DNA of 45,480 bases from the IMG/VR virus record IMGVR_UViG_3300025117_000115, positions 1 to 45,480 of that record. The stretch is one strand, 5' to 3'. The DNA comes from a virus. The position numbers and the translations under genes were made by a program. Positions 2,108 through 45,480 of this stretch are shown in pieces (positions within the stretch are counted from its first letter, which is position 1; every line of letters starts with the position of its first letter). The notes under the pieces are model-generated. The model was not told the origin of the DNA. It did not search any database and worked only from the letters and a program-made list of their open reading frames with translations.

Positions 2108-2854
2108 TTATGTATTTTTATTGATTAACTGATTTATTCTTTCATTTGCTATATTAAAATATTTTTCTTCTTTTTCTATACCTATATAATTACGATTTGT
2201 GTTTAAACAAGCAATTGCTGTTGTACCTGAACCTATGCAATTATCTAAAACTATATCATTTTCGTTAGTGTATGTTTTGATTAAATATTCAAATAATTTT
2301 AATGGTTTTTGTGTAGGATGGACTTTATCTTTTTGCATAGCATTACTAATTTGTATTACGGATGCAGGATAATACTCATTATTAAAAGAAGTAATATTTT
2401 CAAATTTACCATAACACATATCTCCATTCCCTTGTTTTTTATTATAACTTCCTTTATTGCGAGGTTTGCCTCTGACTTCCATTATGGGATTGTATATTGT
2501 TTGTTTTTTATAAAAACATAATATTTGTTCATGTCTTCTTAATGGTTGTCTTTTTGCATTTAAGAAACCTGTAGTGGAAATTTTATCCCATACTAAATCA
2601 TAATATTTAAATTGTTTTAATTTTGAATTTATTAATATATTAGTAAATGGTTCTGTGCAAGTAAGACAAATCATTCCATTATCATTTATAACTCTATTAT
2701 ATTGTTCCCATAATTTATCTAACGCAATTATACTATCCCATTTATTTTTTGTAGTGCCATATGGTAAATCACATAAAATCATATTAATATTTTTATCACC
2801 AATATCCTTCATTATTTCTAAACAATCACCTAAATATATTTTATTTAATTCTAT
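2108..2854 (-). CDS. DNA methyltransferase (N4/N6 type), AUA start proposed
   Basis: A SAM-dependent amino-methyltransferase for DNA with the motif order catalytic first, SAM-binding second. The catalytic motif is DLPYG (a DPPY variant). The SAM motif is near the C-terminus in VLDNCIGSGTTAIAC. HPTQKP also matches this family. The first ATG (2812) would delete the conserved N-terminus. Reading 14 codons further gives (M)ELNKIYLGDCLEIM, the usual start of this family, with ATA exactly at the Met position and AGGAGG 8 nt upstream. No ATG, GTG or TTG is available, so AUA initiation is inferred. The 19508-20269 gene is a close paralogue with a nearly identical 3' part. Target sequence unknown. Confidence 0.88.
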   Translation of the reverse strand: MELNKIYLGDCLEIMKDIGDKNINMILCDLPYGTTKNKWDSIIALDKLWEQYNRVINDNGMICLTCTEPFTNILINSKLKQFKYYDLVWDKISTTGFLNAKRQPLRRHEQILCFYKKQTIYNPIMEVRGKPRNKGSYNKKQGNGDMCYGKFENITSFNNEYYPASVIQISNAMQKDKVHPTQKPLKLFEYLIKTYTNENDIVLDNCIGSGTTAIACLNTNRNYIGIEKEEKYFNIANERINQLINKNT

Positions 2855-19507: not shown

Positions 19508-20269
19508 TTATTTTATGTATTTTTGATATTTATATTGATTAATTCTTTCATTTGCTAAATTAAAATATTTTTCTTCTTTTTCTATACCTATATAATTACG
19601 ATTTGTGTTTAAACAAGCAATTGCTGTTGTACCTGAACCTATGCAATTATCTAAAACTATATCATTTTTATTTGTGTATGTTTTAATTAAATATTCAAAT
19701 AATTCTAATGGTTTTTGAGTAGGGTGAATAGTTAAACTAGGATGTATTTTTCCAAATATAATTATAGAAGTAGGAAATTTCATATTTCCATGTTCATTAG
19801 ATTTATCAATCATATTTGCTTTACTATAATTACTTCCACTAATATCATCTCTTGCTTTATCACCTTTTGAATGACTTTTCTTTTCTCCTTTGAATTTTTG
19901 TGGATTGTATGTAGGTTGCTTCTTATAAAAGACACATATATCTTCATGTTTTCTTAACGGCATTCTATTAGCATTTAAAAATACAGTAGTCATAATTTTA
20001 TCCCAAATTAAATTATATTTCCACATTTTTCTATTGCTCATCATTAAATCTGCTGTAAACATTCCATTAGCAAATAGACAAATTGCACCATTTTCTTTTA
20101 TTATTCTTTCATAGTGCATCCATAATTCATCAAAGGGTATAATAATATCCCATTTGTTTCTTGCAGTTTGACCATATGGCAAATCACATAAAATTAAATC
20201 TATACTCTTATTATCAATATCCTTCATTACTTCTAGACAGTTACCAAAATATATTTTATTTAATTCTAT
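19508..20269 (-). CDS. DNA methyltransferase (N4/N6 type), second copy, AUA start proposed
   Basis: Same architecture as the 2108-2854 enzyme: catalytic DLPYG, then HPTQKP and the SAM motif VLDNCIGSGTTAIAC. Its first in-frame ATG (20287) lies upstream of the Shine-Dalgarno, inside which the codons GGA GGA would have to be translated. By alignment with copy 1, the natural start is ATA at 20267-20269, giving (M)ELNKIYFGNCLEVM. The last ~60 codons are nearly identical to copy 1 at DNA level, while the middle (target recognition) differs, so the two probably recognise different sequences. Confidence 0.88.
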   Translation of the reverse strand: MELNKIYFGNCLEVMKDIDNKSIDLILCDLPYGQTARNKWDIIIPFDELWMHYERIIKENGAICLFANGMFTADLMMSNRKMWKYNLIWDKIMTTVFLNANRMPLRKHEDICVFYKKQPTYNPQKFKGEKKSHSKGDKARDDISGSNYSKANMIDKSNEHGNMKFPTSIIIFGKIHPSLTIHPTQKPLELFEYLIKTYTNKNDIVLDNCIGSGTTAIACLNTNRNYIGIEKEEKYFNLANERINQYKYQKYIK

Positions 20270-20307
20270 ATTAATTCCTCCTAACAATTATATTTTAAAA
20301 TAATAAT

Positions 20308-25537: not shown

Positions 25538-26263
25538 TTATGTTTTGTTATCAGATTTTAAATTATTTATATCTTCTTCACCATAAAGTTCTATATATCT
25601 ATTTTCATTAAACAAACTTCTGAATTCTCCATAATATTTTATTTCAGCTTTTATTCTTTCAATAACAGCATCTTTGATATCATCAAAATATCCTAAATGT
25701 TTTTGTTTATATCCAACTTGAATATAACTTCTCCATATACTCTTTAATTTATTCCAAGAAACACCTGTAAAACCAGAAGAATTTGTACTTGGTTTTAATC
25801 TATTTTTAGCATTTTCTAATTTATTTGCTGGTCTAAGATTATATTTACAGCAATTTTTTCTATCGCCATCCATATGATCATAATCAATATTATCATCTAA
25901 TCCCATAATTAATCTATGTAATAATATTGATGTTTTCATATCGCCTCTATAATATGTTGCCGTAGCATACCCACTTCCCATTTCAGACCATTTATATTTT
26001 TTAACTTTATCAACATCTTCAATATCAATTAATGCTCTAGATTTTTCTTCATTATTTTTGTCATATAAAATAATCTCAGCATATGTATCATATATTATTA
26101 TTTCATTCAAATCATTTCTAGTTCTTTGTTTTATTTCTCCATATAATTTTATTTGTTGATAATGTTTACTACATAAATACATATTTATTATTTTACTATA
26201 ATATATCTTATAACCAGAATTAGTATCACATCCACAAACTTCACATACTTTATTTATTTTCAC
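25538..26263 (-). CDS. HNH-type homing endonuclease with AP2-like domain
   Basis: The protein has 241 residues. It has an N-terminal zinc motif (CEVCGCDTNSG), a central HNH-type core (LLHRLIMGLDDNIDYDHMDG, RKNCCKYNLRPAN) with the catalytic His, and a C-terminal AP2-like DNA-binding region (SGFTGVSWNKLKSIWRSYI, GYFDDIKDAVIERIKAEI). Free-standing homing enzyme of phages. GTG start with AAGGAG 6 nt upstream; overlaps the end of the RecD gene by 14 nt. It is the last gene of the replication operon. Relatives: 37357 and 39206. Confidence 0.88.
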   Translation of the reverse strand: MKINKVCEVCGCDTNSGYKIYYSKIINMYLCSKHYQQIKLYGEIKQRTRNDLNEIIIYDTYAEIILYDKNNEEKSRALIDIEDVDKVKKYKWSEMGSGYATATYYRGDMKTSILLHRLIMGLDDNIDYDHMDGDRKNCCKYNLRPANKLENAKNRLKPSTNSSGFTGVSWNKLKSIWRSYIQVGYKQKHLGYFDDIKDAVIERIKAEIKYYGEFRSLFNENRYIELYGEEDINNLKSDNKT

Positions 26264-36215: not shown

Positions 36216-37370
36216 TTAATAAGCAATAACTTCCATGAATTCTACTAATTCTTTAAGTTTTTCTATATTGGAAGATTCTAATTCTTTAGGTAATAATTCT
36301 AATTCTTTTAATTTAGCAGAAACTTTTTTAACCTTATCTCCATCAGTTTTTAAAATATTCATTGTTGTTTTAAATTTTTCTAATAATATTTTTTTTGTTT
36401 CTAATTCTTTCTTTTCATCAATCTCTTCTTTTTTCTTTGTTGCATTTTCTTCTACAACTTCTTTTTTTGCTTCTTCTTGAATTGTCCTTGTTTCTTCTAT
36501 TGATTTTGCATCAGATTGTTTATTATGTTCTGCTTTAATAGCATCTTGCAATGCATTAATTAAAGAATCTGCATCAAGTGGAATTTCTTCTACTATATCT
36601 GCAAATCTACTACCACTATCTAAAGCCATATTATCATCTCTGAATTTAATTTTTCTACTTTCTTCTGTTAATTTATTTCTAGTTTCATCTTTTTTAGTAA
36701 CAATATTTTTCTTTCCTGTTTTTTCTGTTATAATCGTTCTATCATAATATGCAAGTCCAATAAAATGCATCTTTTTCTTTAAAAGATTGAAATATATTTT
36801 TTCAACATCAGATGTTAGTGTTTGATATGTAGTACCTGTTGCAATATCAGTAAGTTCTCTATTCTTAACATGACCAATAATAATCATTGAAACTCCAATT
36901 TTTCTTAATCTTACTACAATATCAAACATTAATTCAAACGCTTTTGCTTGACCTTTTTGAAAACCATTCCATGCAGAATCTATTGAATCTGCTTTTTTAT
37001 CTGAATGATCTTTATTCCATAAACGAATTGCTTCTTTTTCTGCTAATTTAATCCAACCATCATATGTATCAGCAACAATAGCTTTTAAATTTGCATATTC
37101 TGTATTTTTATTATATTCAATATCTTCAATAATATCTTCTAATTCTTCCCAATCGTCAACATCTTCATAAACAATACCACTAATTGCATCTGCTCCAGCT
37201 TCTCCAGCCATTTCTAAAAATATATACCCATCTTCACCAATAAGTCTTTCAAGCATTTCTTTAATAACAGTAGATTTTCCAATTTTAGGTTCTCCTAACA
37301 AGCAAATATTATACGCCAAAGGATCTACTTTTATTATATTCTTTTTTCCAAACTTTCTATTGTTTATCAT
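36216..37370 (-). CDS. Sak4-like recombination ATPase
   Basis: The protein has 384 residues. Walker A is GEPKIGKST at 26-34, then a Walker-B-like strand LKAIVADTYDGW around residue 90-101. These match AAA_24/Sak4-type phage proteins that help single-strand annealing and recombination. The C-terminal third is an acidic, Lys/Glu-rich coiled region (KKEVVEENATKKKEEIDEKK). It sits next to the ssDNA-binding-like protein. The start overlaps the 3' end of the HNH gene by 14 nt. Confidence 0.78.
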   Translation of the reverse strand: MINNRKFGKKNIIKVDPLAYNICLLGEPKIGKSTVIKEMLERLIGEDGYIFLEMAGEAGADAISGIVYEDVDDWEELEDIIEDIEYNKNTEYANLKAIVADTYDGWIKLAEKEAIRLWNKDHSDKKADSIDSAWNGFQKGQAKAFELMFDIVVRLRKIGVSMIIIGHVKNRELTDIATGTTYQTLTSDVEKIYFNLLKKKMHFIGLAYYDRTIITEKTGKKNIVTKKDETRNKLTEESRKIKFRDDNMALDSGSRFADIVEEIPLDADSLINALQDAIKAEHNKQSDAKSIEETRTIQEEAKKEVVEENATKKKEEIDEKKELETKKILLEKFKTTMNILKTDGDKVKKVSAKLKELELLPKELESSNIEKLKELVEFMEVIAY

Positions 37371-37881
37371 ATTTTTTATTTCTCCTTGTATTATTCATAT
37401 TTTCAATTCTTGTTACCCATTTACAATTATTTTTATTATAACCTTGATTACAATCTATTCTATCAATTTCTGTATCTTCTTTATATTCTTCTTTATGTAA
37501 TTGATAACTTTCATACATATCATTCATAAAATTTTTAAATTCCAGCCATTCATCACAAACTTTAATTCCATGACCACCATAATAATTATAAAATTGATGA
37601 TTTGGATTATTACATCTTTGTGTCATACTTTTCCATATATAATAAAATGGTGTTTGACTCATATTATGTTTAGAATTTGCTTTTGAAATCATTTCATTTC
37701 TATAGCATCCACATGATAGTGTTTGACCACTTCTAAGTAAATAACCTCTAGTCGTAATTTTATTACCACATTCACATTCGCATATCCAAGCAGGTTTATT
37801 ACATATATTTTCTTTTGCTCTTTTAATTACGGTTAATCTACCAAATTTCTGATTAGTTAAATCAATTGCTTTAATGCCAAT
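37357..37881 (-). CDS. HNH-type homing endonuclease, AUU start proposed
   Basis: Full length, 174 residues. The N-terminus, (M)GIKAIDLTNQKFGRLTVIK, is homologous to the 39206 gene (GKVIDLTNQTFGRLTVIKR). It continues with a zinc module (ICECECGNKI, LSCGC) and a nuclease region GHGIKVCDEWLEFKNF, EIDRIDCNQGYNKNNCKWVT. The first ATG is at 37692; 63 further codons upstream are open and homologous but have no ATG, GTG or TTG. AAGGAGG lies 8 nt before ATT (37879-37881), the position of the paralogue's ATG. It overlaps the Sak4-like start. Likely a mobile nuclease without an intron. Confidence 0.8.
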   Translation of the reverse strand: MGIKAIDLTNQKFGRLTVIKRAKENICNKPAWICECECGNKITTRGYLLRSGQTLSCGCYRNEMISKANSKHNMSQTPFYYIWKSMTQRCNNPNHQFYNYYGGHGIKVCDEWLEFKNFMNDMYESYQLHKEEYKEDTEIDRIDCNQGYNKNNCKWVTRIENMNNTRRNKKYDKQ

Positions 37882-39205: not shown

Positions 39206-39922
39206 TTATTTTTTATTTCCTTTATATTTATATTCTCCGAAATATTCATCTTCTGCTTTCAATCTTGTATTTACAGCATCTTCAAAATTATCAAAATAAC
39301 CTAAATGAATATATTTTCCGTTTTTACCTATATTTGCATTCCATTTTCCTTTATCTTTTCTCCAAACAACCCCAGTTACACCAGATGTATTATTTGATTG
39401 CAAATCTCTATTCATACTGTTTTGACTTCTAGTAACTAGTCTTAAAAATTCTTTTCTATTATCATTTTTATTATGAAATATATGATCTACTTCCATATCA
39501 TCAGGGCAATTCATAACTAAACGATGCATAAGTATAACCATATATCCAGTTATTACATAATTATCTGCATTAATATGCCAACTATAGTCTTTTATTTTAT
39601 CATAATCTTCTAAATCAAAGTAAAATTCTTCATTGTTTAAAGTATAACCAATACCATATTTACCTGTTAAGTCATATGTATTATGATTTTTACTTATTTG
39701 GCTAATTTCCCTAACTATTTCTTTTTGTAAACAACCACATGATTTAGTATGACCATTTCTTAAACTCGACCCTCTGATTATTTTTAAACTATCTTTTCCT
39801 AAACAATCACATTGACATAACCAGTATATTTCTCTTGATTTATTATTTTCAATTCTTTCTACTCTTTTAATTACAGTTAATCTTCCAAATGTTTGATTTG
39901 TTAAATCTATAACTTTCCCCAA
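39206..39922 (-). CDS. HNH homing endonuclease with AP2-like domain
   Basis: The protein has 238 residues. The N-terminal module (VIDLTNQTFGRLTVIKR, CQCDCLG, SCGCLQKE) is shared with 37357. It has a central HNH-type core (ILMHRLVMNCPDDMEVDHIF, HNKNDNRKEFLRLVTRSQNS) and a C-terminal AP2-like part (SGVTGVVWRKDKGKWNANIG, GYFDNFEDAVNTRLKAEDEY). Free-standing, placed between the acidic protein and the SSB-like gene. Probably a homing enzyme that targets phages lacking it. Confidence 0.88.
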   Translation of the reverse strand: MGKVIDLTNQTFGRLTVIKRVERIENNKSREIYWLCQCDCLGKDSLKIIRGSSLRNGHTKSCGCLQKEIVREISQISKNHNTYDLTGKYGIGYTLNNEEFYFDLEDYDKIKDYSWHINADNYVITGYMVILMHRLVMNCPDDMEVDHIFHNKNDNRKEFLRLVTRSQNSMNRDLQSNNTSGVTGVVWRKDKGKWNANIGKNGKYIHLGYFDNFEDAVNTRLKAEDEYFGEYKYKGNKK

Positions 39923-40588: not shown

Positions 40589-41809
40589 CTATCTCAATTC
40601 TATCAAATACTTAATAGTCATTTGCTCTTCTTTATAAACAATAATCTCATCATTATATAACATACTACCTGCATATGCATGAAGTGAATTAACACCAGGA
40701 CACATTTTTTGTAAATTCTCATAATTAAGATTATAAAACTTACTATCAAATGAATATACATCATATGGTTTACCATAGGCAACATTAAATAATGCCATGA
40801 ATCCTGAATTAGAATTACCATTAGACCATCTAGAACCAGATAAAGATGTATAACCAAGTGATTTCTTTGCCTTTGGAGCGAAGTAGCAACCAAAACCGAA
40901 CATTTTACCATTTATTACCACTTTTGAAGGTCTTAAAACTAATCCTGAATTAATAATACCCCAAATATTCTCTGAACGAGATCCATGAAATAATAATCTT
41001 TGGTCTTTAATTTTCTCATTAGCAACAAACTTTTCATATCTTTCTTGTGTCTTTAAATTAATAACTTTCCATGCAGAGTAAAACTTATTACTAATTTCAC
41101 CTAATTCTTTCTTAATCATTTTTAATTCTTCTTGTGTAACTTCTTCAAATTGCAATCCCATTGCATCTAATATTGTTTTATTATTTTCTACTTCTGTTTC
41201 AATATCGTTATCCTCATTTTTTTCTTCAATAGAATGCTGAGTAACCTGACCTTTCATTACATCAAGTAAATCTTGTTCTCTTTGAAGTATTTCAGAATAA
41301 TCTTTATCAGTTTTTGCTAAATAATCTTTAACTTTTCCCATTTTTCTAGGAATAGTTTTAAATAAATCAACTAATACCTTATTAAATAATTCAATATCAT
41401 CAATATTAATTAGATTATTTAAAATTAATTGTGCTTCATCAACCATAACCTGAGTAACATTATTTGAAGAAATAGTATAATTGTCTTTAATCGCTTGTCG
41501 TGCCATTGATTGTAATCTTGCTACAATTTGTGCAATGGAAGGATTATTAATATCAAGATATTCTTTCTTCTTATTTGGTGTGATAGTAGTTTCTGCAACA
41601 AGTCTAGATTGGTCAACATATCCTTTTTTAATTTTACTTTTATATGTAGATTCCCATTTAGATATTGGATAAGTTTTTGTTTGATAGCCAGAAGTTCCTA
41701 TTCTTCCATATTTACTAACAAAATTTCCATCTCCACTATCCAACATCTGGTAATACTTGTTGTTATTTTCTCCTGGTTCTACTTTAACTAGATATAATGG
41801 ATTTTGCAT
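40589..41809 (-). CDS. WGR-PARP-type ADP-ribosyltransferase
   Basis: The protein has 406 residues and matches the WGR, helical and catalytic parts of poly(ADP-ribose) polymerases. The WGR region is at residues ~1-80 (SKYGRIGTSGYQTKTYP). A helical regulatory domain spans about 90-235 (SIAQIVARLQSMARQAI). The catalytic domain spans 240-406. The H-Y-E triad is present: His275 in LLFHGSRSENI, Tyr309 in FGFGCYFAPKAKKSLGY, Glu388 in YNDEIIVY. It transfers ADP-ribose from NAD+ to protein or DNA ends; Glu predicts chain elongation. The WGR domain suggests activation by DNA breaks. It shares an operon with a macrodomain and a DNA ligase. Rare in phages; a bacterial relative exists in Clostridioides. 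Confidence 0.92.
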   Translation of the reverse strand: MQNPLYLVKVEPGENNNKYYQMLDSGDGNFVSKYGRIGTSGYQTKTYPISKWESTYKSKIKKGYVDQSRLVAETTITPNKKKEYLDINNPSIAQIVARLQSMARQAIKDNYTISSNNVTQVMVDEAQLILNNLINIDDIELFNKVLVDLFKTIPRKMGKVKDYLAKTDKDYSEILQREQDLLDVMKGQVTQHSIEEKNEDNDIETEVENNKTILDAMGLQFEEVTQEELKMIKKELGEISNKFYSAWKVINLKTQERYEKFVANEKIKDQRLLFHGSRSENIWGIINSGLVLRPSKVVINGKMFGFGCYFAPKAKKSLGYTSLSGSRWSNGNSNSGFMALFNVAYGKPYDVYSFDSKFYNLNYENLQKMCPGVNSLHAYAGSMLYNDEIIVYKEEQMTIKYLIELR

Positions 41810-41822
41810 ATATCCACCTCTC

Positions 41823-42242
41823 TTATAAATAACAAACTAAAATTTCAATGTCAATATCTTCAAATACATCTTCAATAATTTCCTTAACAACATCCCAATC
41901 CAACTTGTCTAGTCCACATCCTATCATCGGCATTGCAATCTTTTCAATTTCTAATGTTTCAATTGTTTCAATCATATCTTCTAATGATTCTCTTAAACTT
42001 GCATATGTAGGTTTATGATAACATTTTCTTTTAGTTACTAGATTAAATACATTATCAATTAGAATTGCACAATTATCAGGAATATAATCAACAGTATTCT
42101 TTAACTTTTTACGCATATTATACAATTCATTAAATTTTACTGCAATTCCTGCACCTAAAGCGAAATCACCTGAAATGCAATGTGCAAAATAATAACCATG
42201 TGGTACTGAAAATAAATCTCTTTGTTCTTCTCTTAAAATCAT
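41823..42242 (-). CDS. TARG1-like macrodomain ADP-ribose hydrolase
   Basis: A 139-residue single macrodomain close to human TARG1/OARD1. YFAHCISGDFALGAGIAVKF (18-37) is the ADP-ribose loop. TKRKCYHKPTYASL (70-83) supplies Lys71, equivalent to the catalytic Lys84 of TARG1. MPMIGCGLDKLDW (104-116) supplies Asp112, equivalent to Asp125. It removes ADP-ribose from proteins or from DNA. The same subclass includes DarG, antidote to the DNA-ADP-ribosylating toxin DarT. Downstream of the ligase gene and 13 nt upstream of the PARP-like gene, so writer and eraser are co-expressed. Confidence 0.93.
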   Translation of the reverse strand: MILREEQRDLFSVPHGYYFAHCISGDFALGAGIAVKFNELYNMRKKLKNTVDYIPDNCAILIDNVFNLVTKRKCYHKPTYASLRESLEDMIETIETLEIEKIAMPMIGCGLDKLDWDVVKEIIEDVFEDIDIEILVCYL

Positions 42243-42275: not shown

Positions 42276-43601
42276 TTAATTATAACTAGGCTCACTCTTA
42301 TCGTCTCTATAACTGATCAATCTGCACAATCTTAAATCAATATTACCATTTTCATTAATACTCTCATCCATATATTTAACACGCACAATCTTACCAACTA
42401 TTTCATCTTGATTATTCCAAATATAATCTCTGACTAATCTATCATCATATTTTTCAGAATTATACTTTGTTTTATATCCACCCATAATATTAACTGAGTT
42501 TCCTTTATAATCAACAATCATTTTACCTAAAGTATTTTCAAATGCTTTACCTTTTTCACCTTTTTCAAAACCAATTACACGTAAATCTGCCTCTTTTTCG
42601 GTTTTAATTTTTAACATTTGTTGGTATGACTTCTTACCATTATATTTTACATCTAATGGTAACACCATAATACCTTCGTCATCTTGCTCCATCATTTTTT
42701 CAAACCAATAATCAATTTGAGCAATATCTTTTCCTACATAGAATGGATCAACATTACTAATTAAATTAGAATTAATTTTATCAACTAATTCTTTTGCTAA
42801 ATTCTTTCTATCCCTGCAAATCATAGGGTGATAACCTTTATAAAATCCATCATCAGGAATAAAATTAAATACATTTACTTCTATCCCATGTTTAATTCCA
42901 TCTTTTCTAAGAATAGAACCAGTTTTATTAAATTTTTCTGTTCTAGACATAGTATTTTCATTATCAATTGCTAATAATTCACAAGAAAATACTCCATGTG
43001 GTAAATCTGCATCTAATAAAACTTTTTCAATATCGGTTAATCCTTTATACAATTCTCCACCAGAAGACATAATTTTTACTATATTGTTACCTACTTCAAT
43101 TTCTGCCCTATATCCATCTAATTTTTTATAAATACCAAACTCTTTACCTTTTAATAATTGAATATGTTTTGGTTCTGCAACTTCACCTTTCTCTAATTTA
43201 TGAATATAAATAAATTCATATCCAAAAGCACTATTGATAGTTTTTTCTTTTAATCCACAACGTAAATCTTGAAGTATAATTTGAATATATAATTCTTTCA
43301 TATCATCTTCTTGCTGTGATAAAAATTCTTGAATATTTGCAATTACATCATCTGAACCAGTATTATGAATAGATAAATATTCTCTTAAATCATAGAAATT
43401 ATTAATAGTAATTGTTGATTTAGATTTAACTTTTTTCTCAAGTTTCTTACGTTTAATACCAGTTTTTACTTCTGTGGTATAAACAAATGTAAGAATGTCT
43501 TTCAATAATTCATTAGATTGATTATTTTTCAAGATTGATTCTTTTTCATTACGACTAGATGTACTTGCTAATTGATTCATGATATTTAATATTTGTTGCA
43601 T
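42276..43601 (-). CDS. ATP-dependent DNA ligase
   Basis: The protein has 441 residues. The N-terminal helical domain is followed by the nucleotidyltransferase motif I, YKKLDGYRAE (KxDG, Lys160), then an RxDG-type region and the motif FNFIPDDGFYKGYHPM. The C-terminal OB-fold ends IVRVKYMDESINENG then RLCRLIS. It seals 5'-phosphate nicks using ATP. The start MQQILNIMNQLAS (43599-43601) has GGAGG 9 nt upstream; a TTG 21 nt earlier overlaps that site. First gene of a three-gene operon with macrodomain and PARP. Confidence 0.92.
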   Translation of the reverse strand: MQQILNIMNQLASTSSRNEKESILKNNQSNELLKDILTFVYTTEVKTGIKRKKLEKKVKSKSTITINNFYDLREYLSIHNTGSDDVIANIQEFLSQQEDDMKELYIQIILQDLRCGLKEKTINSAFGYEFIYIHKLEKGEVAEPKHIQLLKGKEFGIYKKLDGYRAEIEVGNNIVKIMSSGGELYKGLTDIEKVLLDADLPHGVFSCELLAIDNENTMSRTEKFNKTGSILRKDGIKHGIEVNVFNFIPDDGFYKGYHPMICRDRKNLAKELVDKINSNLISNVDPFYVGKDIAQIDYWFEKMMEQDDEGIMVLPLDVKYNGKKSYQQMLKIKTEKEADLRVIGFEKGEKGKAFENTLGKMIVDYKGNSVNIMGGYKTKYNSEKYDDRLVRDYIWNNQDEIVGKIVRVKYMDESINENGNIDLRLCRLISYRDDKSEPSYN

Positions 43602-43638
43602 AATATGTATCCTCCTTTTCAATTCTTAATCTTTCCTT

Positions 43639-43667
43639 ATTATACTATTATTTTTCTTATCTGTCAA
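43639..43667 (-). promoter_or_regulatory. Sigma-A-type promoter of the ligase-macrodomain-PARP operon
   Basis: Minus strand: TTGACA (43667-43662), 17-nt spacer, TATAAT (43644-43639). Both hexamers are perfect; start site about 30 nt before the ligase ATG. Confidence 0.88.
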
Positions 43668-44168: not shown

Positions 44169-45480
44169 TTAAACTCCTATACTACTTAAATTATTTAGAC
44201 TTTGTAATCTTACTATTTCTGTATCATGTAATTTTATAAAGTTATCAAAATCTATTACACATAAATCATTATTTATAGTTTTTAAATCATCATTAACATT
44301 TTTAATTAAATAAGCAGAATAAAGATCTCTTTGTATTTTAATATCTTTGTCTTGATAATTAATATAATTCCATCTTTGTGATAATTTCTTTTTATTATAC
44401 TGTTGATTTAGATGATTATATTGACTTGCTTTAACTTTTCTAGTATTAATCTCATAATATAATCCACCTCTTATTTTTAATTTATTTTGTAATATAGTTA
44501 AAAATTTACTAGGTGCTTTATTGGCAAGTGATTTACCAAATCGTTTCTTTTTATTATACTTACCATTTTTATTTATTGTTGTTTTTTTACTTCTTTTTTG
44601 AATCCCTTTATAATTCATTTCTTCAACATGAACTATATTACAATTATTAAGTATTTCATTTACCATAATATTATGATCTTGTTCTCTTATATCTGCTTGT
44701 TTTCTATATAATTCTTTTAACTTATTTTTGGCTTTCATATACTTTTTAGAATAATTCCATTTTAATTTAATACCTTTTTTAATAGTGCCATTATCATTAA
44801 AATTATTAGGATTGGTAGCACGTTTACTTCTATCCATATATCTTTGTATCTTCCGTTTTTTGTTTTCAATATTTTGTACATTAGGTGCTAATTCTAATAA
44901 TTTAACATTATTATCAGAGCATATTGCTAATGTTTGTGTTCCTATGTCTATACCGCATATTCCATTGCCAATATGATATTTAATCTCACCAGTTTGTTTA
45001 TTTATTTTAAGAGGTGGAATACCTTCTAATACTAATTGTAGTATATATTTATACTTACCACGTACAAATTTACGTTTAATTCTACAAAAACATATTTTAT
45101 TACTTAAACAATTTATTTCATATTGATTATTAATATCTAACATTATTGGTATTTTTAATTTATTCCATATTAATTGATTAGTTTTAATATTATATTTAAT
45201 ACCTGATTTATTCCATTTCCCTTCTAAAGAATTTAAAGGATTATTTTTATTTTTAAAATGAACAGTTTTACCTTTTCCAAATAAATTATCGCTTAAAGCA
45301 GTCCATACTCTACTTGCAATTTTTTGTGCTGTAAAACTATCTATATTTGTTTTATAATGTTTATAAATTGGTATAACATCTTCATGAAGTGAATACTCAT
45401 TAAGTTTAAATTCTTGTAACATATTATTTTTAATATCATAATATGGTTTACAAAGTTTCTTTAATTGTTTAGAGTTATCT
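44169..45480 (-). CDS. tnpB: TnpB-family RNA-guided nuclease, 5' end outside the window
   Basis: The frame is open to the right edge; ATG at 45422 is internal, so the N-terminus lies beyond. RuvC-like catalytic residues are seen: ICGIDIGTQTLAI (Asp), VHVEEMNYKG (Glu) and IQRDLYSAY (Asp). The usual four-Cys zinc finger is missing; KASQYNH stands at that place. TnpB enzymes use an RNA from the 3' end of their gene to cut DNA beside a short motif. It is an uninterrupted relative of the broken copy at 11700-13136. No tnpA was seen, so it may act as a selfish or domesticated nuclease. Confidence 0.85.
   Translation of the reverse strand, partial: DNSKQLKKLCKPYYDIKNNMLQEFKLNEYSLHEDVIPIYKHYKTNIDSFTAQKIASRVWTALSDNLFGKGKTVHFKNKNNPLNSLEGKWNKSGIKYNIKTNQLIWNKLKIPIMLDINNQYEINCLSNKICFCRIKRKFVRGKYKYILQLVLEGIPPLKINKQTGEIKYHIGNGICGIDIGTQTLAICSDNNVKLLELAPNVQNIENKKRKIQRYMDRSKRATNPNNFNDNGTIKKGIKLKWNYSKKYMKAKNKLKELYRKQADIREQDHNIMVNEILNNCNIVHVEEMNYKGIQKRSKKTTINKNGKYNKKKRFGKSLANKAPSKFLTILQNKLKIRGGLYYEINTRKVKASQYNHLNQQYNKKKLSQRWNYINYQDKDIKIQRDLYSAYLIKNVNDDLKTINNDLCVIDFDNFIKLHDTEIVRLQSLNNLSSIGV

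What the first reader, a model, noticed from the sequence alone, without database searches (positions are those of the whole stretch)
40589..41809. Complete WGR-helical-catalytic PARP in a virus-like genome
The protein keeps the DNA-sensing WGR, the auto-inhibitory helical domain and the polymerising Glu388, unlike short mono-ADP-ribosyltransferases of T4 (Alt, ModA). It could modify host RNA polymerase or deplete NAD+, or mark phage DNA breaks. Inserts lie in the WGR motif (KYGRIG instead of WGRIG).
Basis: partly seen in the sequence, partly recalled or inferred. Interest (0 to 1): 0.82.

Follow-up and report, generated by a model that had tools for sequence, protein, structure and literature searches.

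The report
Phage PARP–macrodomain–ligase operon
A clostridial-type phage carries a PARP1/2/3-like enzyme predicted to sense DNA breaks, in one operon with the enzyme that would erase its ADP-ribose mark and a DNA ligase; this trio recurs across many phages and looks like a compact break-marking and sealing module.

Summary
The 406-aa ORF at 40589-41809(-) is a WGR–helical domain–PARP catalytic protein with an intact H275-Y309-E388 triad. Phage PARPs of this layout were already known (Aeh1, Cellulophaga phi4:1, XacN1, Klebsiella phages). 'YGR' is the usual bacterial form, not an insert. Glu388 does not prove polymer synthesis. The PARP is the third gene of ligase > macro > PARP, with two perfect sigma-70-type promoters bracketing the unit. 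The macro is a close TARG1 relative (E 2e-24, TM 0.9, both catalytic residues kept). Of 50 relatives clustered at 90% identity, 44 have a macro gene just upstream, 34 within 30 nt. The ligase slot holds an ATP-dependent ligase or NAD-dependent LigA; the macro slot a TARG1-like or Poa1/MacroD-like domain. The cassette has moved between phages with unrelated flanks. Bacteroidota chromosomal relatives lack both neighbours. Best reading: a phage-encoded, reversible, break-activated ADP-ribosylation cycle coupled to DNA end protection and ligation (PARP3–TARG1–ligase-like), probably mono- or short-chain because PARG is absent in 26 of 27 genomes. Rivals: host-protein modification, a DarTG-like pair, anti-defence. 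Activity is untested.

The parts
40589..41809 (-). WGR-helical-ART PARP, 406 aa
   Evidence: Pfam PARP 7e-24 and WGR 2.3e-6; AF2 plus Foldseek to PARP1/PARP2
41597..41797 (-). WGR domain (aa 5-71), YGR variant, invariant G35 R36 K59 K62 G63 Y64
41246..41542 (-). helical (auto-inhibitory type) domain, aa 90-188
   Evidence: AF2 helices; Foldseek; HD-only profile match to PARP_reg-bearing PARPs; not seen by Pfam or by phmmer alone
40595..41167 (-). ART catalytic domain (aa 215-405) with H275, Y309, E388 (E388 codon 40646-40648)
41823..42242 (-). TARG1/OARD1-like macro domain, 139 aa, K71 (human K84) and D112 (human D125) kept; ends 13 nt before the PARP ATG
   Evidence: Pfam Macro 2e-6; PDB 4j5r 1.9e-24; AF2 pLDDT 94.4, Foldseek TARG1 TM 0.86-0.93; K71 and D112 invariant in 26
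42276..43622 (-). ATP-dependent DNA ligase, 448 aa from TTG (a start at ATG 43601 is more likely, just downstream of the promoter)
   Evidence: Pfam DNA_ligase_A_M 6e-10; PHROG 114 5e-79; PDB ligases
43639..43667 (-). perfect TTGACA-N17-TATAAT promoter-like site directly upstream of the ligase
   Evidence: same place in L003, L013, L014, L020, L012
40488..40516 (-). perfect TTGACA-N17-TATAAT promoter-like site directly downstream of PARP, before the next unit (orf82-HNH-SSB), bounding the cassette

Best explanation
This is a phage-encoded reversible ADP-ribosylation cycle for DNA breaks, coupled to DNA joining. Shown by sequence and model: a WGR-HD-ART PARP with a complete H-Y-E site, a TARG1-type macro hydrolase with both catalytic residues, and a DNA ligase, in one promoter-bracketed gene set. 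The unit is conserved and transferred as a unit, with non-homologous replacement in two of its three slots. Inferred: (1) the WGR binds a nick or end in phage DNA and the bound DNA releases HD auto-inhibition, as in PARP1-3; (2) the ART uses NAD+ to put mono- or short-chain ADP-ribose on itself, on neighbouring proteins or on the DNA 5'-phosphate end, which holds or shields the end from nucleases and further processing; (3) the macro removes the mark, regenerating the 5'-phosphate or releasing the protein; (4) the adjacent ligase seals. In function it would resemble human PARP3 plus TARG1 plus a ligase, packed into one operon of the replication and repair region.
For: Domain layout and active site. 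TARG1-type macro. 44 of 50 phage clusters have a macro within 2.5 kb upstream and 34 of those under 30 nt away. Over 27 whole records, macro-PARP gap is <=2 kb in 19 of the 23 that have a macro, against 0.94 expected under random placement; ligase-PARP gap is <=2 kb in 11 of 26, against 0.95 expected (not phylogenetically independent). The ligase slot is refilled by an unrelated NAD-dependent LigA (L006, L007, L063, L086 as LigA > macro > PARP; L079 as LigA > PARP). The macro slot is refilled by a different macro family (L043-L046, L050, L056, L076). PARP-ligase adjacency recurs in other orders in phi4:1 (L022), a 595-kb phage (L027), L051, L047 and L160. Transfer of the block: L009 and L010 are 97.6% identical over 6 kb with diverged flanks; L016/L009 and L006/L004 share mainly macro+PARP. 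The window region encodes SSB, DnaB-like helicase, DnaE and RecD2. Precedent: PARP3 mono-ADP-ribosylates 5'-phosphate DNA ends and TARG1 reverses it, needing D125 (PMC5725667). PARG absent in 26 of 27.
Against: No activity, DNA-binding or expression data. Ligase genes often lie near replication genes, so part of the ligase signal may be general gene clustering; in several phages the ligase is more than 30 kb away while macro-PARP stays paired (L057, L062, L064, L083, L085). Some macro copies have lost the GAGIA loop (L063, L085, L086, L093). Five of 50 clusters lack a nearby macro. Chromosomal Bacteroidota relatives exist without either neighbour. The helical-domain model is only moderately confident (pTM 0.56).
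Confidence: 0.5

Rival explanations
1. Host take-over enzyme: the PARP modifies host proteins (RNA polymerase, nucleoid or repair proteins), as T4 Alt/ModA do, and the macro trims or limits the modification.
For: Phage ARTs are widely thought to act this way (PMC9503650, PMC7824862). Nothing in sequence fixes the acceptor.
Against: The WGR and HD are DNA-break sensing parts with no obvious use for a soluble host target. The gene sits with the ligase and replication genes rather than with head or packaging genes. A dedicated eraser beside it and refilled ligase and macro slots are not expected for a one-way modifier.
Confidence: 0.2
2. DarTG-like toxin-antitoxin or superinfection-exclusion pair: DNA breaks in an incoming competitor activate the PARP, which depletes NAD+ or blocks DNA, and the macro is the antitoxin.
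For: Macro-before-ART order with gaps of about 0-15 nt or overlaps resembles toxin-antitoxin operons; the macro is related to the DarG macro (NCBIfam DarG 1.1e-13, far under cut-off; PADLOC DarG 5.7e-16). ART-hydrolase pairs exist in phages (PMC9503650).
Against: The ART is PARP-type, not DarT. The macro is nearer TARG1 than DarG (about 37% v 21% identity in Foldseek) and lacks the C-terminal part of DarG. Ligase is repeatedly the third member. The PARP matches no PADLOC defence model.
Confidence: 0.13
3. Anti-defence: ADP-ribose caps or PARP occupancy protect phage DNA ends from host nucleases (restriction, RecBCD/AddAB, Gabija-like systems), or the macro undoes host DarT-type DNA ADP-ribosylation.
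For: TARG1 rescues DarT toxicity, needing K84 (PMC8501950). End-capping follows from the same chemistry. The cassette moves between phages like an accessory module.
Against: It overlaps the best explanation and is not distinguishable by sequence. Anti-DarT alone would not explain the tight pairing with a PARP.
Confidence: 0.12
4. The PARP is a degenerate or incidental host acquisition and the gene order is inherited clustering without functional meaning.
For: PARP ORF interrupted in a few relatives (L018/L019, L046). Homing endonucleases litter the locus.
Against: Triad, WGR and macro catalytic residues invariant at about 60% mean column identity; replacement in situ in two slots; block transfer.
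Confidence: 0.05

Closest known systems
Human PARP1/PARP2/PARP3 (clade 1, DNA-break PARPs)
   Same: WGR-HD-ART order, H-Y-E triad, Foldseek match over the three domains. Like PARP3 there are no zinc fingers or BRCT.
   Different: About 18-20% identity; YGR for WGR; helical domain not recognised by Pfam; phage gene in an operon with its eraser and a ligase.
Known phage PARPs: Cellulophaga phi4:1/phi17:2, Aeh1, XacN1, Klebsiella FBKp34/KP13-16, Stenotrophomonas RAS14 (PMC4245714, PMC7824862; PHROG 23333 'polymerase')
   Same: Same WGR-ART family; phi4:1 also has a ligase one gene away.
   Different: 33% identity to phi4:1, 24-26% to the gammaproteobacterial phages; of those whose surroundings were examined none has a macro gene directly next to the PARP (a macro lies 2.4-2.6 kb upstream in the two Klebsiella phages). 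Aeh1's surroundings were not examined.
Bacterial PARPs clade 1 (Cytophagales/Clostridiales) of the CdPARP study (PMC5966428)
   Same: WGR-PARP with a helical domain only visible in models; YGR motif. The phage clade branches beside Bacteroidota chromosomal PARPs.
   Different: Bacteroidota genes lack macro and ligase neighbours. Several 'clostridial' or Bacillota copies sit in phage-type loci or match virus records (L130 = L081, L132 ~ L051). CdPARP itself is in their clade 2.
TARG1/OARD1 and DarG macro domains
   Same: Macro fold, TM 0.86-0.93 to TARG1; K84 and D125 equivalents kept.
   Different: Stand-alone phage protein paired with a PARP, not with DarT.
DarTG toxin-antitoxin
   Same: An ART gene beside a macro-domain gene.
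   Different: PARP-type DNA-sensing ART, no DarT, no DarG C-terminal domain, ligase as third gene.

Membership tests
Clade-1 (DNA-damage) PARP | ART fold with H-Y-E triad | tested here: met
   H275, Y309, E388 invariant; Pfam 7e-24
Clade-1 (DNA-damage) PARP | WGR domain | tested here: met
   Pfam WGR over cut-off; 45 of 48 family members match
Clade-1 (DNA-damage) PARP | helical PARP_reg domain between WGR and ART | tested here: met
   structure and profile evidence; Pfam PARP_reg itself not reached
Clade-1 (DNA-damage) PARP | DNA-break-dependent activity | not testable with these tools
   needs an assay
Poly-ADP-ribosylating enzyme | chain elongation | not testable with these tools
   Glu388 necessary but not sufficient; PARP3 is mono on DNA (PMC5725667); PARG missing in 26 of 27 genomes
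TARG1-type ADP-ribosyl hydrolase | macro fold with catalytic Lys84 and Asp125 equivalents | tested here: met
   K71 and D112 invariant in 26; TM 0.86-0.93
DarTG toxin-antitoxin | DarT toxin | tested here: not met
   the ART matches PARP and no PADLOC model
DarTG toxin-antitoxin | full-length DarG antitoxin | tested here: not met
   51 bits v cut-off 250; macro part only, 139 aa
T4 Alt/ModA-type ART | R-S-E clade active site | tested here: not met
   H-Y-E present

The most novel reading that the evidence does not exclude
A self-contained phage 'mark, erase and seal' machine for DNA breaks: a nick-activated PARP caps or tags phage DNA ends with ADP-ribose, a TARG1-like enzyme uncaps them, and a co-encoded ligase (ATP- or NAD-type, interchangeable) joins them. 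It would be a prokaryotic counterpart of the eukaryotic PARP3-TARG1-ligase axis.
Probability: 0.4. Interest if true: 0.88.

Novelty: new variant of a known kind. Interest (0 to 1): 0.63.

Why it matters
In the papers read here no natural role is established for any prokaryotic or phage DNA-break PARP; activity has been shown only in vitro (HaPARP, CdPARP). A conserved, mobile operon that pairs the writer with a dedicated eraser and a ligase gives a direct prediction (break-end ADP-ribosylation coupled to ligation) in genetically simple phages. It would also bear on where the eukaryotic PARP/TARG1 repair axis came from, and it suggests that several 'clostridial' PARPs are phage-borne.

Tried and rejected
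WGR 'insert': rejected, plain substitution. PARP as new to phages: rejected. Poly-specific reading from Glu388: not supported. HD-only phmmer to PDB: no hit, replaced by profile and fold evidence. PARG partner: absent in 26 of 27. phi4:1 gp030 as a hidden macro: no sequence support; it is instead weakly homologous to genes next to Bacteroidota PARPs. ATP-ligase chosen because the PARP depletes NAD+: rejected, NAD-dependent LigA fills the same slot. PADLOC defence system: no match for the PARP or ligase, only a partial DarG match for the macro. First genome-contig query with A1 failed for lack of a conserved stretch, repeated with A3. Two literature searches with narrow terms found nothing. One alignment call failed on wrong frames and was redone.

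Full report
Observation. The ORF 40589-41809(-) codes for 406 aa starting at ATG behind an AGGTGG ribosome site. Pfam sees WGR (residues 5-67) and the PARP catalytic domain (227-405), both over cut-off, and no PARP_reg. Across 15 phage and bacterial sequences only about 20 columns are invariant, among them Y20, G35-R36, K59, H275-G276, Y309, K316-S317 and E388; the same triad is invariant in 48 phage sequences whose identity to the window is 47-86%. The helical domain is real but divergent. The AF2 model has a helical bundle at 90-188. Foldseek aligns the model with human PARP1 and PARP2 WGR-HD-CAT on DNA breaks. phmmer to PARP2 runs through it (73-355), and the PARP1 alignment pairs IPRKMG with IPHDFG and LLD with NLLD. 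An HD-only profile falls onto the Pfam-recognised PARP_reg of a plasmid PARP. The HD alone has no phmmer hit. The 'insert' is not there: KYGRIG is a substitution, and Y is the most frequent residue at this place in bacterial PARPs (PMC5966428).

Known or new. Phage PARPs are known: Perina et al. listed Aeromonas phage Aeh1 and Cellulophaga phage phi4:1 (PMC4245714), and Iyer et al. noted the PARP whose accession, BBA65562.1, is that of XacN1 (PMC7824862) and phage PARTs in general (PMC9503650). tblastn finds 15 phage records, several annotated as PARP. The gene itself is therefore a new member of a known kind.

Surroundings. On the same strand, upstream in transcription order, lie an ATP-dependent ligase (42276-43622) and a 139-aa macro domain (41823-42242) that ends 13 nt before the PARP. 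The macro matches human TARG1 at 1.9e-24. Its model (pLDDT 94.4) superposes on TARG1 at TM 0.86-0.93 and about 37% identity, ahead of DarG at 0.85-0.89 and 20-22%. K71 and D112, the equivalents of human K84 and D125, are invariant in 26 TARG1-like copies; mutants in K84 and D125 lose TARG1 activity (PMC8501950, PMC5725667). Only three perfect TTGACA-N16-18-TATAAT sites occur in the window (0.24 expected; 0 of 100 shuffles gave three). Two of them stand directly before the ligase and directly after the PARP, and the bracketing recurs in L003, L013, L014, L020 and L012 (where the first hexamer was allowed to be TTGACA or TTGACT).

Relatives. IMG/VR holds 193 contigs with a relative; 80 were kept. 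Of 50 clusters (90% identity) of the phage clade, 44 have a macro gene within 2.5 kb upstream, 34 of them within 30 nt; one has it downstream and five have none. In 27 whole records a macro lies within 2 kb of PARP in 19 of the 23 that have one, and a ligase in 11 of 26, against about one expected each under random placement. These counts are not corrected for kinship. The strongest evidence is therefore replacement in place. In L006, L007, L063 and L086 the order is NAD-dependent LigA > macro > PARP, and in L079 LigA > PARP, although L006 and L007 PARPs are 86-88% identical to the window's. In L043-L046, L050, L056 and L076 the macro is of a different family, nearer Bacteroides and Poa1-type macro proteins than TARG1. 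PARP-ligase adjacency in the reverse order is found in phi4:1, a 595-kb phage, L051, L047 and L160. The block is mobile: L009 and L010 share 6 kb at 97.6% with diverged or unrelated flanks; L016/L009 and L006/L004 share mainly macro+PARP.

Origin. In the tree the phage clade lies beside Bacteroidota chromosomal PARPs (quick tree, several long branches). Those have neither macro nor ligase within the fetched flanks, apart from one macro 3.3 kb away in L170. Some database 'bacterial' copies in this clade look phage-borne: the R. bromii PARP of L130 is identical to that of virus record L081, and Paenibacillaceae L132 is nearly identical to L051. The window's own phage is clostridial-type (DnaE 56% to LIBA6276; that phage shows no PARP hit), so the cassette is accessory.

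Mechanism. Shown: parts, conserved active sites, gene order, conservation, replacement and transfer. Inferred: co-transcription, break sensing, ADP-ribosylation of ends or end-bound proteins, removal by the macro, and sealing. The closest biochemical precedent is human PARP3, also WGR-HD-ART without zinc fingers, which mono-ADP-ribosylates terminal 5'-phosphates of DNA, a mark TARG1 removes (PMC5725667). Lack of PARG and the presence of a terminal-ADP-ribose hydrolase make mono- or short-chain marking more likely than long polymer. Since LigA, itself NAD-dependent, fills the ligase slot, wholesale NAD+ depletion is an unlikely purpose.

Rivals and limits. A host-directed modifier, a DarTG-like pair and anti-defence remain possible. 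DarTG membership fails on two defining features. Nothing was assayed; the HD model is of moderate confidence; the literature library is open-access only, so a published description of this operon could have been missed. Verdict: PARP confirmed and of known kind; the PARP-TARG1-ligase operon is a new variant, interest 0.63.

Noticed in passing
L043-L051, L056, L076, L079, L128, L129 (directly or closely downstream of PARP): A ~100-aa DUF7291-like protein (YFRIPERKQRIIHTKDETIVILDDGSKGVAKC...) follows the PARP in another phage sub-branch; a possible fourth partner.
   Followed up: partly
L022:7157-7621 (phi4:1 gp030) and the gene downstream of PARP in L139-L152, L168: phi4:1 gp030, between PARP and ligase, is weakly homologous (best 3e-6) to the small gene directly after the chromosomal PARP in Saprospiraceae/Cytophagales; a second conserved PARP neighbour shared by phage and hosts.
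   Followed up: partly
L063, L085, L086, L093 macro genes: PARP-linked macro copies that lost the GAGIA loop; possibly ADP-ribose readers rather than erasers.
   Followed up: no
window 39206-39922, 25538-26263, 37357-37692; L012, L043, L099: HNH or other homing-endonuclease-like genes scattered in and around the cassette, sometimes splitting ligase, macro and PARP apart.
   Followed up: no
window 44169-45422 and 11700-12800/12840-13145: Two related OrfB_IS605 (TnpB-type) transposase-like genes; the second looks split into two ORFs.
   Followed up: no
L130 (R. bromii), L132 (Paenibacillaceae), L131, L134, L169: PARPs filed under clostridial or Bacillota genomes match virus records or share the phage macro-PARP order; 'bacterial' PARP counts in these groups partly count phages.
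   Followed up: partly
L018, L019, L046: PARP ORF broken into two frames near the WGR end; L020 holds an intact related copy.
   Followed up: no
window 2108-2812 and 19508-20287: Two similar DNA-methyltransferase-like genes sharing a near-identical C-terminal stretch, suggesting recent duplication or recombination (by eye).
   Followed up: no
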